Shown here one piece after another: positions 1,377 to 18,199 of a stretch of 40,003 nucleotides of DNA. The notes below the pieces were generated by a model. It was not told the origin of the DNA and ran no database searches. It worked only from the letters and a program-made list of their open reading frames with translations. Position 1 is the first letter of the stretch. Each line of letters begins with the position of its first letter. A program made the translations under genes and the position numbers. This DNA is from Methanosarcina sp. MSH10X1. Lineage in GTDB: Archaea; Halobacteriota; Methanosarcinia; Methanosarcinales; Methanosarcinaceae. Location: the NCBI RefSeq assembly GCF_004099695.1, contig NZ_SCHL01000025.1, forward strand, positions 1 to 40,003, in the 5' to 3' direction.

Positions 1377-1955
1377 TTGATTAAAGCAGAGCAGGAGAAT
1401 TTAAAACAGGTTACTTCAGAAAAACTGGCATATTCGGAGAAAAAGTCTATTAGCCAGCCGGGAGCAAGTCCTGAAAAAATCGAAAAAAATATCGTAGGAC
1501 AACCATTTCCGGAGATCACATCAAAATCACTTGCAGGTAACGTTGTAACCTTTTCGGAAGCGACTGGTGGAAAGGTGACACTTATATGTATTGCCTTTGT
1601 GCGCAATGCCCAGAGCATGATTGATTCCTGGGTTCAGCCGTTTGAGCAGAGATTCGGAAAAGACAGCAGGTTTGCGGTCTATGAGATTCCGATGATAAAC
1701 AAAGCCTGGAAGGTTATCTCCTGGGTGATTGACTCAGGAATGAGAGGGGGAATTCCGGTAGAGAAACACGACAATGTGGTCACTTTTTACGGAGATTATT
1801 CCGGCTACCAGAAAAGCCTCGGCATAGAAGATACGAATCTTGCCTATGTCTTTTTGCTGGACCAGAAGGGAATTATCCGCTGGAAAGGGAAGGGGCATGC
1901 AAGACCTGATACTGAAAGAAAGCTTCTTGAGAGTGCAGAGACTCTCGTACAATAG
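1377..1955 (+). CDS. ATP10-like thioredoxin-fold protein
   Basis: The 192-residue protein has no signal peptide. After a charged N-terminal 40 residues, it carries a redoxin-like core (VGQPFPEI, then a beta strand KVTLICIAF) and a C-terminal stretch, YVFLLDQKGIIRWKGKG, typical of thioredoxin-fold proteins and of the ATP10 family, whose yeast member assists ATP synthase assembly. No CXXC is present where a thioredoxin would have it (FVRNAQS), so redox catalysis is doubtful. The only possible start in frame is TTG at 1377, almost touching a GGGGGAG run, so the start is unusual or uncertain. The next gene begins 22 bases after the stop, which suggests an operon with the propeller protein. The archaeal function is unknown. 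Confidence 0.7.
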   Translation: MIKAEQENLKQVTSEKLAYSEKKSISQPGASPEKIEKNIVGQPFPEITSKSLAGNVVTFSEATGGKVTLICIAFVRNAQSMIDSWVQPFEQRFGKDSRFAVYEIPMINKAWKVISWVIDSGMRGGIPVEKHDNVVTFYGDYSGYQKSLGIEDTNLAYVFLLDQKGIIRWKGKGHARPDTERKLLESAETLVQ

Positions 1956-1977
1956 CTAATTTCAAGATGGTGGGGAA

Positions 1978-3123
1978 ATGAAAGGATCAAAGATAATATT
2001 TGGGGTTTTTGCTGCGATTGTACTTATTTTCGCGGCTTATGCCGTCCTCAGAACCGTACCTATTGGGGAGTGTCGTGAGAATGGAGAAGGGTTGGAATGC
2101 ATAGAGCTTCCGCCTGGTTTTTCCATTGATTATTACGCACAGGATGTAGAGAATGCAAGACAAATGGCTGTGAGCCCGAACGGTACGCTTTTTGTAGGAA
2201 GCCGGGATGCGGGAAAAGTTTACGCAATCCCTGACCGGAACAATGACAGTAAAGCCGATAATGTAATTGTGCTCGCTGAGGGCCTGGATTCGCCAAATGG
2301 GGTGGTATTCAGGAACGGCTCGCTATATGTCGCTGAGATCTCCAGGATAACTCGCTATGATAATATCGAGGCAAGGCTTGAGGATCCACCCGAGCCCGTT
2401 GTGGTTAATGATAGTTTTCCTTCCGACCGCCGTCACGGCGTGAAATATATCGAATTCGGACCTGATGGAAAGCTGTATGTGCCTGTAGGAGTGCCATGCA
2501 ACATTTGTAATAAGGAAGGGGAAGACGAGCGGTACGGAACAATCACGAGAATGGAACCCGATGGGAGCCAGTTTGAGATCTATGCAAAAGGTATAAGGAA
2601 TACCGTCGGTTATGACTGGAACCCCGAGACCGGAGAATTATGGTTCACTGACAATGGAAGGGACGGTCTTGGGGATAACATACCTCCGGATGAACTCAAC
2701 CTGGCACCTGAAAAGGGAATGCATTTTGGTTACCCCTATTGCCACGGGGGAGATATTCCTGATCCGGAATTCGGGGAACTCAGGAACTGCTCGGAGTTCA
2801 CACCTCCTGAGATGAAACTGGGCCCGCATGTGGCTTCACTTGGAATGACTTTTTACACAGGTACAATGTTCCCTGAAGAGTACAGGAACCAGATCTTTAT
2901 TGCCGAACACGGTTCATGGGATAGAACAGTTCCAATAGGATACAGGGTTACCCTTGTCAGATTAGAGAACGGAACGCCTGTCAGTTACGAGCCTTTTGCG
3001 GATGGCTGGCTCCAGGGGCTTGCAGCCTGGGGAAGACCTGTGGACGTCCTTGTAATGCCTGATGGAGCCCTGCTTGTTTCGGATGATAAGAATAACGCAA
3101 TTTACAGGATCAGCTATAGCTAA
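1978..3123 (+). CDS. Membrane-anchored PQQ-type sugar (sorbosone) dehydrogenase-like beta-propeller
   Basis: The 381-residue protein starts at an ATG behind a GTGGGGAA SD. Residues 5-25 form one hydrophobic segment, an uncleaved anchor or signal, so the body should lie outside the membrane. The rest reads as a six-bladed propeller of the glucose/sorbosone dehydrogenase family: MAVSPNGTLFVGSRDAGKVYA, then DNIEA, YIEFGPDGKLYVPVG, NTVGYDWNPETGELWFTDNGRD, FIAEHGSWDR and a closing VMPDGALLVSDDKNNAIYRI. Family members oxidise sugars with PQQ, but many archaeal relatives have no proven substrate, and methanogens are not known to make PQQ. Four Cys residues (CRENGEGLEC and CNIC) could form disulfides. 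It is the second gene of the operon starting at 1377. Confidence 0.85.
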   Translation: MKGSKIIFGVFAAIVLIFAAYAVLRTVPIGECRENGEGLECIELPPGFSIDYYAQDVENARQMAVSPNGTLFVGSRDAGKVYAIPDRNNDSKADNVIVLAEGLDSPNGVVFRNGSLYVAEISRITRYDNIEARLEDPPEPVVVNDSFPSDRRHGVKYIEFGPDGKLYVPVGVPCNICNKEGEDERYGTITRMEPDGSQFEIYAKGIRNTVGYDWNPETGELWFTDNGRDGLGDNIPPDELNLAPEKGMHFGYPYCHGGDIPDPEFGELRNCSEFTPPEMKLGPHVASLGMTFYTGTMFPEEYRNQIFIAEHGSWDRTVPIGYRVTLVRLENGTPVSYEPFADGWLQGLAAWGRPVDVLVMPDGALLVSDDKNNAIYRISYS

Positions 3124-3189
3124 TCGAGAAACATTGAAAATGCTGACCTGAAGAGTTATCCGAACATCCTGCAATACCTGATCCGTGTG

Positions 3190-3207
3190 CCATAAGGTAT
3201 CTTATGG
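3190..3207. promoter_or_regulatory. Palindrome upstream of the ferritin-like gene (possible operator)
   Basis: CCATAAG-GTAT-CTTATGG is a perfect 7-base inverted repeat. It has no T-run, so it is not a clear terminator. It lies about 80 bases upstream of the TATA-like element of the ferritin-like gene. It could bind a dimeric regulator. Confidence 0.3.
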
Positions 3208-3286
3208 GAGCCAGTAAGATTGCTCAGCAGGTAATTATCTGGCTAAGACCATGAGAAAGCTTGCCGGATCAGGTAAAAACATTTAT

Positions 3287-3294
3287 TTTATATC
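3287..3294 (+). promoter_or_regulatory. TATA-like element for the ferritin-like gene
   Basis: TTTTATAT lies 28 bases before the TTG start of the next gene. That would place the transcription start just before the GGGGGG SD run and give a very short leader. Confidence 0.35.
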
Positions 3295-3321
3295 CTCATA
3301 TACGTAAGCGGGGGGAATAAG

Positions 3322-3606
3322 TTGTTATCAAAAATACCCGTAGACATTAAAAGCGTATCTGAAGGAGATATTGATAAAGAGATTATCAGAGCCGCAATCG
3401 TCGCCGAGATTGATGCTATAAACCTTTATGAGCAGATGGCAAACTTAACAAAAAATGCGAACGTAAAAGCCGTGCTAATGGATGTAGCAAGAGAGGAAAA
3501 AACGCATATTGGAGAGTTTCAGGCTCTCTTGCTTCAGTTTGACCCTCAGCACAAGGAAGAGGTCGAAGCCGGAGCCAGAGACGCGGAAGAAGTGCTGTCC
3601 AAATAA
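3322..3606 (+). CDS. Small ferritin-like (EncFtn/rubrerythrin-type) diiron protein
   Basis: The 94-residue protein is made of two predicted helices. Each carries a ligand pattern of ferritin-like carboxylate-bridged diiron sites: an acidic helix AEIDAINLYEQMA and a second helix with EEKTHIGEF, an E-x-x-H motif. The length and the EEKTHIGEF block resemble the encapsulated-ferritin (EncFtn) family, whose members form the iron site between two subunits and often sit in encapsulin shells. No encapsulin gene is in this window, so here it may act alone in iron storage or peroxide protection. The start is TTG with a strong GGGGGG/GGGGGA SD four bases away. It has its own promoter candidate at 3287. 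Confidence 0.75.
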   Translation: MLSKIPVDIKSVSEGDIDKEIIRAAIVAEIDAINLYEQMANLTKNANVKAVLMDVAREEKTHIGEFQALLLQFDPQHKEEVEAGARDAEEVLSK

Positions 3607-3738
3607 TTCCTCTGGTTCCTTCAAGCCTCGGATCTCACTTTATATTTTTTAGTAAGTAGAGTTAAGTTTAAGTCCGTTTTTATTTTCAACCCTTTTTAAT
3701 TCAAGCCTTCTTTCAGGAATCCTTTTCCTCTGTTTCTC

Positions 3739-4845
3739 TCACAGTTTTCCGGCAATGAACTCTTCAGTCATGCGGTATGCTTCAGTATCGGGATACTGTT
3801 CAGGCGGATGTTTCATAAAATATGCCGAAGGCGGATGAAGGACTCCGCCTTTTCCCCTGTCAAGAGCCAGCTTGCAGCATCGAATGGCATCGATAACCAC
3901 GCCTGCCGAGTTCGGAGAGTCCTCAACCGAGAGCCGGAGTTCGAGGTTCATGGGCACATCCCCGAAGAGTTTTCCTTCCATTCTCAGGAAACATACCTTA
4001 TTGTCCTTCTGCCAGGAAACGTAATCGCTTGGACCAACATGAATATTTCCGCTCTCAAGCCTGTTTTCGAGTATGGATTGGACGGCTTCGGTTTTTGACT
4101 CTTTCTTCGAGGCTAGCCTTTCCCTGTTAAGCATATTAAGGAAATCGGTATTTCCTCCGGTATTAAGCTGGTAGGTTCTCTCCAGTTTTACTCCCCTTTT
4201 CCTGAAGAGGTCTGCAAGCATCCTGTGGACAATGGTAGCCCCTAGCTGGGACTTGATGTCGTCACCTATAATAGGGAGCTTGCTCTCTTCGAAACGTTTT
4301 GCCCATTCGGGGTCGCTCGCAATAAATACAGGCATATTGTTAATAAAAGCACAGCCTGCTTCAAGGGCGCATTCGGCATAGAAGCGGGCAGCCTGTTCGG
4401 AACCCACCGGCATATAGTTCAGGAGGATCTCGGCTCCCGAGTCCTTCAGAGCAACTACGATTTCCTCTTTTGTCGCGCCGTCACCATCTACCGGTAAAAA
4501 CCTGCATTCCTCAGGGTAATTCGCAAGGTGGTCGGAACAGCCGTCCAGCACCCTCCCGAGTTTCACATTCGTCCCTGCCGGCGGGATATCCGGGCAGAAC
4601 ACCGTTGTGCAGTTGGGAAGTGAAAATATCGCTTCCGACACATCTTTTCCCACCTTTCTTCGGTCGATATCAAAAGCTGCTGCCACTTCAATCTCATACG
4701 GCAAGTAGCCCCCAAGATTCCAATGCATAAGGCCAAACGAATCCGCGTCCTTCTTTTTCCGGTAGTATTCGATCCCCTGCAGAAGTGAGCTTGCGCAGTT
4801 CCCTACTCCTGCAATGGCTATTTTTATCCTGTCTTTACCTGCCGC
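3739..4845 (-). CDS. Inositol-1-phosphate synthase, start codon unclear
   Basis: The enzyme makes inositol 1-phosphate from glucose 6-phosphate, the first step to archaeal inositol lipids and osmolytes. The first in-frame ATG is at 4728, but the frame clearly continues upstream: 4729-4836 encode KIAIAGVGNCASSLLQGIEYY, the NAD-binding glycine loop every family member needs. Later landmarks are AAFDIDRRKVGKDVSEAIF, NYMPVGSE, PIIGDDIKSQLGAT (the catalytic Lys region) and NTGGNTDFLNM. Between the upstream stop and 4728 there is no ATG, GTG or TTG. A GGGGGA SD sits at 4852-4857, and six bases beyond it lies GCG (4843-4845), exactly where GTG would be expected. Options are an ATA/ATT start or a start-codon mutation. 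The 4845 end given here is an inference. Confidence 0.85.
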   Translation of the reverse strand, partial: AAGKDRIKIAIAGVGNCASSLLQGIEYYRKKKDADSFGLMHWNLGGYLPYEIEVAAAFDIDRRKVGKDVSEAIFSLPNCTTVFCPDIPPAGTNVKLGRVLDGCSDHLANYPEECRFLPVDGDGATKEEIVVALKDSGAEILLNYMPVGSEQAARFYAECALEAGCAFINNMPVFIASDPEWAKRFEESKLPIIGDDIKSQLGATIVHRMLADLFRKRGVKLERTYQLNTGGNTDFLNMLNRERLASKKESKTEAVQSILENRLESGNIHVGPSDYVSWQKDNKVCFLRMEGKLFGDVPMNLELRLSVEDSPNSAGVVIDAIRCCKLALDRGKGGVLHPPSAYFMKHPPEQYPDTEAYRMTEEFIAGKL

Positions 4846-17443: not shown

Positions 17444-17584
17444 TCATCCATAAATCATTATTGAATCAAGCCTTGCCGTACCTGCTTTTGTCCAGTAGCT
17501 GCAAATGTCACAGTACTGGGTCTCGCTGTCTGAGTGCAGTTTAAGGTTAGCGTTGCATTTTGGACATATTTTTAGATGTTTCAT
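17444..17584 (-). CDS. Small zinc-ribbon protein, 46 residues
   Basis: An ATG at 17584 follows AGGGGTT and opens a 46-codon frame. The protein reads MKHLKICPKCNANLKLHSDS, then ETQYCDICSYW and TKAGTARLDS. Two CXXC knuckles (CPKC and CDIC) about 20 residues apart form a classic zinc ribbon. Such stand-alone ribbons in archaea may act in transcription, translation or protein contacts; no specific role is assigned. The metal motif, SD and start make it a convincing small gene, in the otherwise empty gap between the ligase gene and the RNA candidate. Confidence 0.7.
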   Translation of the reverse strand: MKHLKICPKCNANLKLHSDSETQYCDICSYWTKAGTARLDSIMIYG

Positions 17585-17654
17585 GAATAACCCCTTAAGT
17601 TTATATTTTTAAATGAATAAACAATTTTTAAAGCATATAATTCTAAAAGTAATT

Positions 17655-17812
17655 CCAAAAGAAACCCCGAGGGTTATCCTGCTGTATCCCCCAATACAGC
17701 CCCTTCGAATATTATGCTCCCCCAAGCACATTGATTCGAAGAAGGATAGCGACCAGGAGGTTCTTTTATTTGATTGGTGATACCCCGGCTCTGTCCCAAC
17801 TCCAACACATAG
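17655..17812 (-). ncRNA. Candidate structured small RNA
   Basis: A GC-rich island of about 160 bases lies between AT-rich flanks. On the minus strand a TATA-like element (TTAATATAATTTA, about 17827-17839) would start transcription near 17812. Two hairpins follow. The first has outer arms CTTCGAAT/ATTCGAAG (17703-17710, 17734-17741) around an inner stem TGCT/AGCA with loop TGGGGG. The second has stem GCTGTAT/ATACAGC (17681-17700) with the same TGGGGG loop. An unpaired CCTCCT (17755-17760) precedes them. The island ends with AACCC-TCG-GGGTT and a T-rich TCTTTT, a good terminator on the minus strand. A 70-codon frame covers part of it but has no SD and reads unlike a protein. Methanosarcina small RNAs are known to act at ribosome sites; identity with any of them is not claimed. 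Confidence 0.55.
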
Positions 17813-17932
17813 TAATAGCATAAATTATATTAAATAAATTATACCAAAAATTGTTTTTAATTCAAAAATAGTTTGGCGTAAAAAATTTCAAGCCCATTAT
17901 AACCCTTCTATCCGTCTTAAAGCTTACAAGAG

Positions 17933-18027
17933 TCATAGGATATTCATGATGTCATAGGATATGCATGATGTCATAGGATATGCATGATGTCATAGGATAT
18001 GCATGATGTCATAGGATATGCATGATG
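17933..18027. repeat. Tandem repeat, 19-base unit, five copies
   Basis: The unit is TCATAGGATATGCATGATG, repeated five times head to tail; only the first copy differs (TATTCATG). Near-identity of the copies points to recent expansion. Each unit contains the palindrome ATGCAT. The array ends just before the small frame at 18032. Confidence 0.9.
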
Positions 18028-18031
18028 TTAT

Positions 18032-18199
18032 ATGGATCTTATTTCGTTAGCTAAAGAAACTAACAGCAATGCCCATGGAGTTTTCATTCAGGGTATTGAT
18101 GGTAACAGCAACATTTTTTATTACTATGAGAATAGGCAGGAAAAGAGTGTTAGGGAAATAGTTAATGGAACTTACGCAGTTGAATTGAGAGCTCATTAA
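18032..18199 (+). CDS. Possible small protein or gene remnant, 55 residues
   Basis: A frame with ATG at 18032 encodes MDLISLAKETNSNAHGVFIQ, then GIDGNSNIFYYYENRQEKSV and REIVNGTYAVELRAH. The composition looks protein-like (a GIDGN turn and a closing strand), but no SD is present and a 19-base tandem array sits directly before the start. It may be the C-terminal remnant of a larger secreted protein. The opposite-strand frame in this region was judged less convincing. Confidence 0.35.
   Translation: MDLISLAKETNSNAHGVFIQGIDGNSNIFYYYENRQEKSVREIVNGTYAVELRAH

What the first reader, a model, noticed from the sequence alone, without database searches (positions are those of the whole stretch)
17655..17840. 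Structured RNA candidate with twin TGGGGG loops and an internal CCTCCT
A GC-rich island in AT-rich DNA has a minus-strand TATA element, two perfect hairpins that display the same hexaloop (one nested in an 8-base outer stem), an unpaired CCTCCT complementary to the SD AGGAGG, and a terminator-like stem with a T-run. Local genes use GGGGGA and GGAGG SDs, so either strand could pair with ribosome sites (CCCCCA loops on plus, CCTCCT on minus). The design fits a regulatory RNA acting on translation; Methanosarcina small RNAs that mask ribosome sites are known, but identity with any of them was not tested.
Basis: partly seen in the sequence, partly recalled or inferred. Interest (0 to 1): 0.65.

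Follow-up and report, generated by a model that had tools for sequence, protein, structure and literature searches.

The report
Multicopy structured RNA gene in Methanosarcina
This spot is one of about thirteen copies, in the same methane-producing archaeon, of an uncatalogued folded RNA that every Methanosarcina genome searched carries with its own conserved promoter, so it is almost certainly a real small-RNA gene family, although what it does is still unknown.

Summary
Window 17640-17892 (minus strand) is one of 13 copies in this genome of a structured RNA family with no Rfam match. A covariance model finds it in 31/31 Methanosarcina genomes (1-22 copies each) and in a sister genus (4 genomes, 4-6 copies), and nowhere else among 150 genomes sampled across the order and 150 across the class. 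The fold is a closing stem P1, a two-part hairpin arm and a second hairpin; 38 of 44 pairs show compensatory changes. The RNA strand is minus: a conserved ~77-nt upstream block with a TATA box sits 21-23 nt before a conserved 5' motif, and G-U cells outnumber C-A cells 418 to 96. Copies include an ancestral tandem array beside tRNA-Gln, plus dispersed copies held at the same loci across species, so it is not an active mobile element. The 'unpaired CCTCCT' is neither conserved nor mainly unpaired. The twin G-rich loops are conserved and resemble Shine-Dalgarno sequences rather than anti-SD. Best mechanism: a trans-acting sibling sRNA exposing repeated GGGGA/GGAG motifs as a decoy. Identity is strong; mechanism is inferred. 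Expression was not testable here.

The parts
17835..17892 (-). Conserved upstream promoter block (TTGAAATTTTTTACGCCAAA...AAAACAATTTTTGGTATAATTTA)
   Evidence: Conserved across paralogues and species; all 10 matches in this genome lie at family loci
17826..17834 (-). TATA box TTTAATATA
   Evidence: 21-23 nt before the first conserved 5' motif in 58 of 79 copies
17640..17807 (-). Predicted small RNA, about 150-165 nt; ends approximate
   Evidence: 5' end from TATA spacing, 3' end from the limit of conservation and U-rich tail; not seen experimentally
17780..17804 (-). Single-stranded leader with conserved UGGAGUUGGGA (17804-17794) and GGGGUAU (17786-17780)
   Evidence: Alignment; GGRA motifs enriched, 2.56 against 0.94 per leader in shuffles
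17653..17769 (-). Structured core matched by covariance model R1 (101.8 bits, E 9e-26)
17744..17768 (-).
   Evidence: covariation
17703..17741 (-). Arm P2/P3: 8-bp stem (17703-17710 with 17734-17741) carrying a hairpin with loop TGGGGG (17724-17719)
   Evidence: helices 3 and 4
17681..17700 (-). Hairpin P4: 7-bp stem (17681-17687 with 17694-17700), loop TGGGGG (17693-17688)
   Evidence: helix 5
17447..17584 (-). 46-aa zinc-ribbon ORF MKHLKICPKC..., 68 nt after the core; neighbour of several copies, not itself part of the family

Best explanation
The island is one gene of a multicopy ('sibling') small-RNA family that is a fixed part of Methanosarcina genomes. Each copy has its own promoter, with a family-specific upstream block and a TATA box, and makes a ~150-165-nt RNA, here from the minus strand: a purine-rich single-stranded leader (UGGAGUUGGGAA...GGGGUAUC) followed by a P1-closed junction holding two G-loop hairpins. 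I infer that it acts in trans. The repeated GGGGA/GGAG motifs of the leader and the two loops, which look like Shine-Dalgarno sequences, would be presented on a rigid scaffold to one shared partner and titrate it: an RNA-binding protein, the 3' end of 16S rRNA, or C-rich sRNAs. Many copies under one upstream element would set the dose. SHOWN here: the family, its fold, strand, promoter, vertical inheritance and spread. INFERRED: transcription itself, action in trans, and the decoy step (about 35% on its own). The confidence given is for a trans-acting non-coding sRNA family.
For: 13 copies here, 31/31 genus genomes, sister genus, nothing outside. Covariation: 22 pairs with double changes on the MAFFT alignment against 12.5 shuffled; 38/44 pairs and 271 cells against 83.5 on 86 copies. 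Strand: G-U 202 against C-A 57, then 418 against 96; TATA-to-motif distance 21-23 nt in 58/79. Promoter block exclusive to family loci in this genome. Ancestral tandem array, each copy with its own promoter, beside tRNA-Gln in two genera. Repeated GGRA motifs in leaders; loops drift in flanks but keep a G-rich core; no genome-wide excess of loop-complementary sites once the RNA genes' own antisense strands are set aside.
Against: No transcript data could be consulted. No partner protein is known; CsrA is not known from archaea (my knowledge). The anti-SD pairing of loops is only slightly better than shuffled loops (about -7.6 against -6.2 kcal/mol), so SD mimicry may just be G-richness. In some loci the RNA precedes a zinc-ribbon ORF by 49-132 nt, compatible with a local leader role.
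Confidence: 0.62

Rival explanations
1. Antisense sRNA family: the G-rich loops or the variable leader pair with specific mRNA sites, each sibling with its own targets, as sRNA154 and sRNA41 of M. mazei do, but with opposite loop polarity (G-rich instead of anti-SD).
For: Known M. mazei sRNAs act on mRNAs, partly by masking ribosome sites (PMC5867862); leaders differ between siblings, which would give different targets.
Against: Loop sequence drifts between subfamilies while only a G core stays. Loop-complementary TCCCCCAA occurs 105 times genome-wide against 87 for the reversed control, and the surplus is roughly the RNA genes' own antisense strands. One of 29 window gene starts has CCCC nearby. 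A few true targets would escape these counts.
Confidence: 0.28
2. Cis-acting 5' leader: the RNA is the untranslated leader of the gene downstream, e.g. the 46-aa zinc-ribbon protein, and controls it.
For: Zinc-ribbon ORF 49-132 nt downstream in the window and several relatives; at three loci the promoter and first RNA bases run straight into that ORF after loss of the core (L037, L103, L106), so this promoter can drive it.
Against: Most copies have other or no close downstream genes, and arrays carry several copies in a row with no ORF between. The zinc-ribbon gene exists across the order without the RNA.
Confidence: 0.08
3. Non-autonomous mobile element (MITE-like) whose hairpins are DNA structures.
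For: Dispersed, multicopy, sharp boundaries that include a promoter.
Against: No terminal inverted repeats are apparent at the boundaries (target duplications were not examined). Copies sit at the same loci in different species and are old. G-U asymmetry shows selection on single-stranded RNA. No match in phage, plasmid or viral collections.
Confidence: 0.02

Closest known systems
CsrB/CsrC and RsmX/Y/Z decoy RNAs (bacteria)
   Same: Repeated G-rich (GGA-containing) motifs in hairpin loops and single strands; sibling copies; no conserved ORF.
   Different: Archaeal; no CsrA partner known; 3-6 G motifs rather than many; unrelated fold; binding untested.
M. mazei sRNA162/sRNA171
   Same: Methanosarcina-restricted structured intergenic RNA of 150-190 nt, with a duplicated sibling whose promoter is also conserved (PMC3510493).
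   Different: sRNA162 is reported as single-copy in M. acetivorans and M. barkeri with three stem-loops and a 39-nt linker between SL2 and SL3 (PMC3510493); this family has 1-22 copies and a different arrangement.
M. mazei sRNA154 and sRNA41
   Same: Genus-conserved sRNAs; sRNA154 is predicted to have two loops; both are linked to ribosome binding sites (PMC5867862).
   Different: sRNA154 loop 2 carries anti-RBS sequence (PMC5867862); here the conserved loops are SD-like.
Multicopy sibling sRNAs such as LhrC of Listeria
   Same: Near-identical small RNA genes in several copies, some in tandem, each with its own promoter (my knowledge for promoters).
   Different: LhrC exposes C-rich sites that pair with SD regions (my knowledge); here the loops are G-rich. 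More copies here, in an archaeon.

Membership tests
Any Rfam 15 family | Match at or above the family's gathering score | tested here: not met
   0 matches in the window; permissive search gives only two chance-level hits
Structured non-coding RNA gene | Compensatory base changes supporting a fold | tested here: met
Structured non-coding RNA gene | Own promoter at fixed distance | tested here: met
   (sequence evidence only)
Structured non-coding RNA gene | A transcript of the expected size | not testable with these tools
   No RNA-seq data on hand
CsrB/Rsm-type decoy RNA | Repeated GGA-type motifs in unpaired positions | tested here: met
   Leader motifs enriched; G-rich loops in nearly all copies. 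Exact ANGGA motif not tested
CsrB/Rsm-type decoy RNA | Binds CsrA/RsmA | not testable with these tools
   No CsrA known from archaea (my knowledge, not searched); likeness is of mechanism only, not membership
sRNA162/171 of M. mazei | Single copy in M. acetivorans and M. barkeri | tested here: not met
   10 copies in G020, whose size 5,751,492 is that of M. acetivorans C2A from memory; feature from PMC3510493
sRNA41 / sRNA154 of M. mazei | Sequence identity with the published RNA | not tested
   Sequences not available
MITE | Terminal inverted repeats, recent mobility | tested here: not met
   No inverted ends apparent in the alignment; locus-stable old copies; target duplications not examined

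The most novel reading that the evidence does not exclude
An archaeal counterpart of the CsrB/Rsm decoys: a dosage-set family of up to 22 sibling RNAs that display Shine-Dalgarno-like G loops to titrate either a global RNA-binding protein or the 30S anti-SD, giving Methanosarcina a lineage-specific global control of translation.
Probability: 0.28. Interest if true: 0.87.

Novelty: new variant of a known kind. Interest (0 to 1): 0.64.

Why it matters
Few archaeal regulatory RNAs are known as families. This one was found in every Methanosarcina genome searched, including one whose size matches M. acetivorans C2A, a species with genetic tools, yet it is absent from Rfam and was not found in the literature searched. 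A large sibling family with a shared upstream element and a covariation-supported fold can be tested directly. If the decoy reading holds, it would be a translation- or RNA-binding-protein titration system in archaea.

Tried and rejected
Rfam at gathering and permissive thresholds: nothing. Plus-strand RNA: rejected by promoter position and G-U against C-A counts, although the plus strand folds with the better z-score. Anti-SD masking via CCTCCT: rejected. Mobile element: rejected. General cis leader of the zinc-ribbon gene: rejected as a family-wide role. Coding role: core length changes in single-base steps between copies, which argues against a shared ORF. The anti-SD pairing test on loops was uninformative. 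A named-species pattern scan first failed through a wrong fixed spacer, then worked. A first clustering of loci by flanks merged nearly everything through shared elements and was redone with multigene peptides left out. The M. mazei dRNA-seq and sRNA154 papers are not held. Literature searches found no description of this family. Intramolecular G-quadruplex: most transcripts have four or more G-runs, but several run through stems and some loops break the run, so this stays speculative.

Full report
Observation. The window holds, at 17640-17892 on the minus strand, a TATA element, a purine-rich stretch and a GC-rich fold with two hairpins sharing the loop TGGGGG. The 117-base core folds better than all 200 shuffles, while the longer 171-base piece does not stand out on the minus strand.

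A family. A blastn search of 20 relatives found the element in 12 genomes (tally as printed), several times in each, with 12 matches in this genome. I aligned 39 copies, wrote a five-helix, 44-pair structure, and tested it: 22 pairs with changes on both sides against 12.5 in shuffles, and 91% of cells paired against 42-55% when partners are slid. A covariance model (R1) then found 13 copies here and 1-22 copies in all 31 genomes of the genus. In 150 genomes across the order and 150 across the class only this genus and one sister genus carry it; these larger searches used stricter filters, so faint relatives may be missed. With 86 copies, including the sister genus, 38 of 44 pairs show compensatory changes, 271 such cells against 83.5 in shuffles. 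This second alignment was fitted to the model and so leans towards it; one search used a MAFFT alignment, although the structure was drawn from that alignment.

Strand and gene boundaries. In helices, cells that pair only as minus-strand RNA (G-U) number 418 against 96 that would pair only as plus-strand RNA. Upstream on the minus strand a ~77-nt block (TTGAAATTTTTTACG...AATTTTTTGCTTGAAAACAATTTTTGATA...TTTAATATA) is conserved. All 10 of its matches in this genome lie at family loci, one of them a decayed copy. The distance from TATA end to the first GGAG/TTGGG motif is 21-23 nt in 58 of 79 copies. Nothing comparable is conserved on the other side. The RNA should therefore run from about 17805 down to about 17640.

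Anatomy. A leader (UGGAGUUGGGA...GGGGUAUC) carries repeated GGRA motifs, 2.56 per leader against 0.94 in shuffles. The core has a long stem P1 closing a junction of arm P2/P3 and hairpin P4. Loops are UUGGGGGA in most copies; subfamilies have UUAAGGGGA, UUGAUGGGA, UUGAGGGAG, GUGGGGGC or UCGGGGGC. What stays constant is a short G-rich run, as in Shine-Dalgarno sequences; 5 of the 20 window genes with a recognisable SD use GGGGG.

Evolution. In Methanosarcina and in the sister genus an array of copies (four to six in the arrays read whole), each with its own promoter, sits between a tRNA-Gln(TTG) gene and the same small protein gene, followed in the sister genus by a gene with a weak match to URO-D-type methyltransferases. 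Other copies are held at conserved loci, e.g. beside genes that I read from their translations as polyprenyl synthetase, exonuclease III, 2-oxoacid:ferredoxin oxidoreductase and a response regulator. Copies at the same locus in different species average 69-95% identity, paralogues in this genome 65% (51-76%). This is vertical inheritance of old duplicates, not recent transposition; phage, plasmid and viral collections have none. Decayed copies also exist: at three loci the promoter and the first bases of the RNA now lead straight into the zinc-ribbon ORF (L037, L103, L106), and a response-regulator gene carries a similar block upstream (L097). The promoter can thus be taken over by neighbours.

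Mechanism. Many copies, one upstream element, a rigid scaffold, and repeated G-rich motifs whose flanks drift while the G core stays fit a decoy better than a classical antisense seed. Sites complementary to the loop number 105 genome-wide against 87 for the reversed control, and the surplus is roughly the RNA genes themselves. The anti-SD pairing test does not decide between a protein and the ribosome as partner. I therefore commit to a trans-acting decoy as most likely, at about one in three, with antisense action close behind. That it is a conserved RNA gene family is, in my judgement, above 95%.

Comparison. No Rfam family matches. sRNA162/171 of M. mazei differ by copy number and arrangement (PMC3510493). 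sRNA154 and sRNA41 could not be compared by sequence; a review describes both as acting on mRNAs, partly by masking ribosome sites (PMC5867862), which the conserved parts here do not favour. The nearest functional likeness is CsrB/RsmZ, by motif logic only.

Limits. No transcript was seen, the partner is unknown, and it remains possible that single members are listed, unrecognised as a family, among the published M. mazei dRNA-seq candidates.

Noticed in passing
17932-18037: A 19-bp tandem repeat, 5.5 copies, 96% matches (GTCATAGGATATGCATGAT), lies just upstream of the RNA promoter.
   Followed up: no
L037, L103, L106: Three loci in three genomes keep the family promoter and the first bases of the RNA but have lost the core and run straight into the zinc-ribbon ORF: apparent promoter capture.
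   Followed up: partly
L097 about 515-590: A block resembling the family promoter lies upstream of a response-regulator receiver gene (PF00072); L100 has a similar block on its minus strand.
   Followed up: partly
17447-17584: 46-aa zinc-ribbon protein (MKHLKICPKC...), with weak Pfam zinc-ribbon matches, occurs in several copies per genome across the order.
   Followed up: partly
L043 about 1700-3800 (reverse-complement print): A transposase-like insertion splits the tandem array of one genome inside the upstream region of one RNA copy.
   Followed up: no
L043, L044, L045, L093-L096: A conserved small protein gene (MTEMFTFSAMVKKENE..., only a weak DUF7387 match) is convergent with the RNA array in both genera.
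   Followed up: partly
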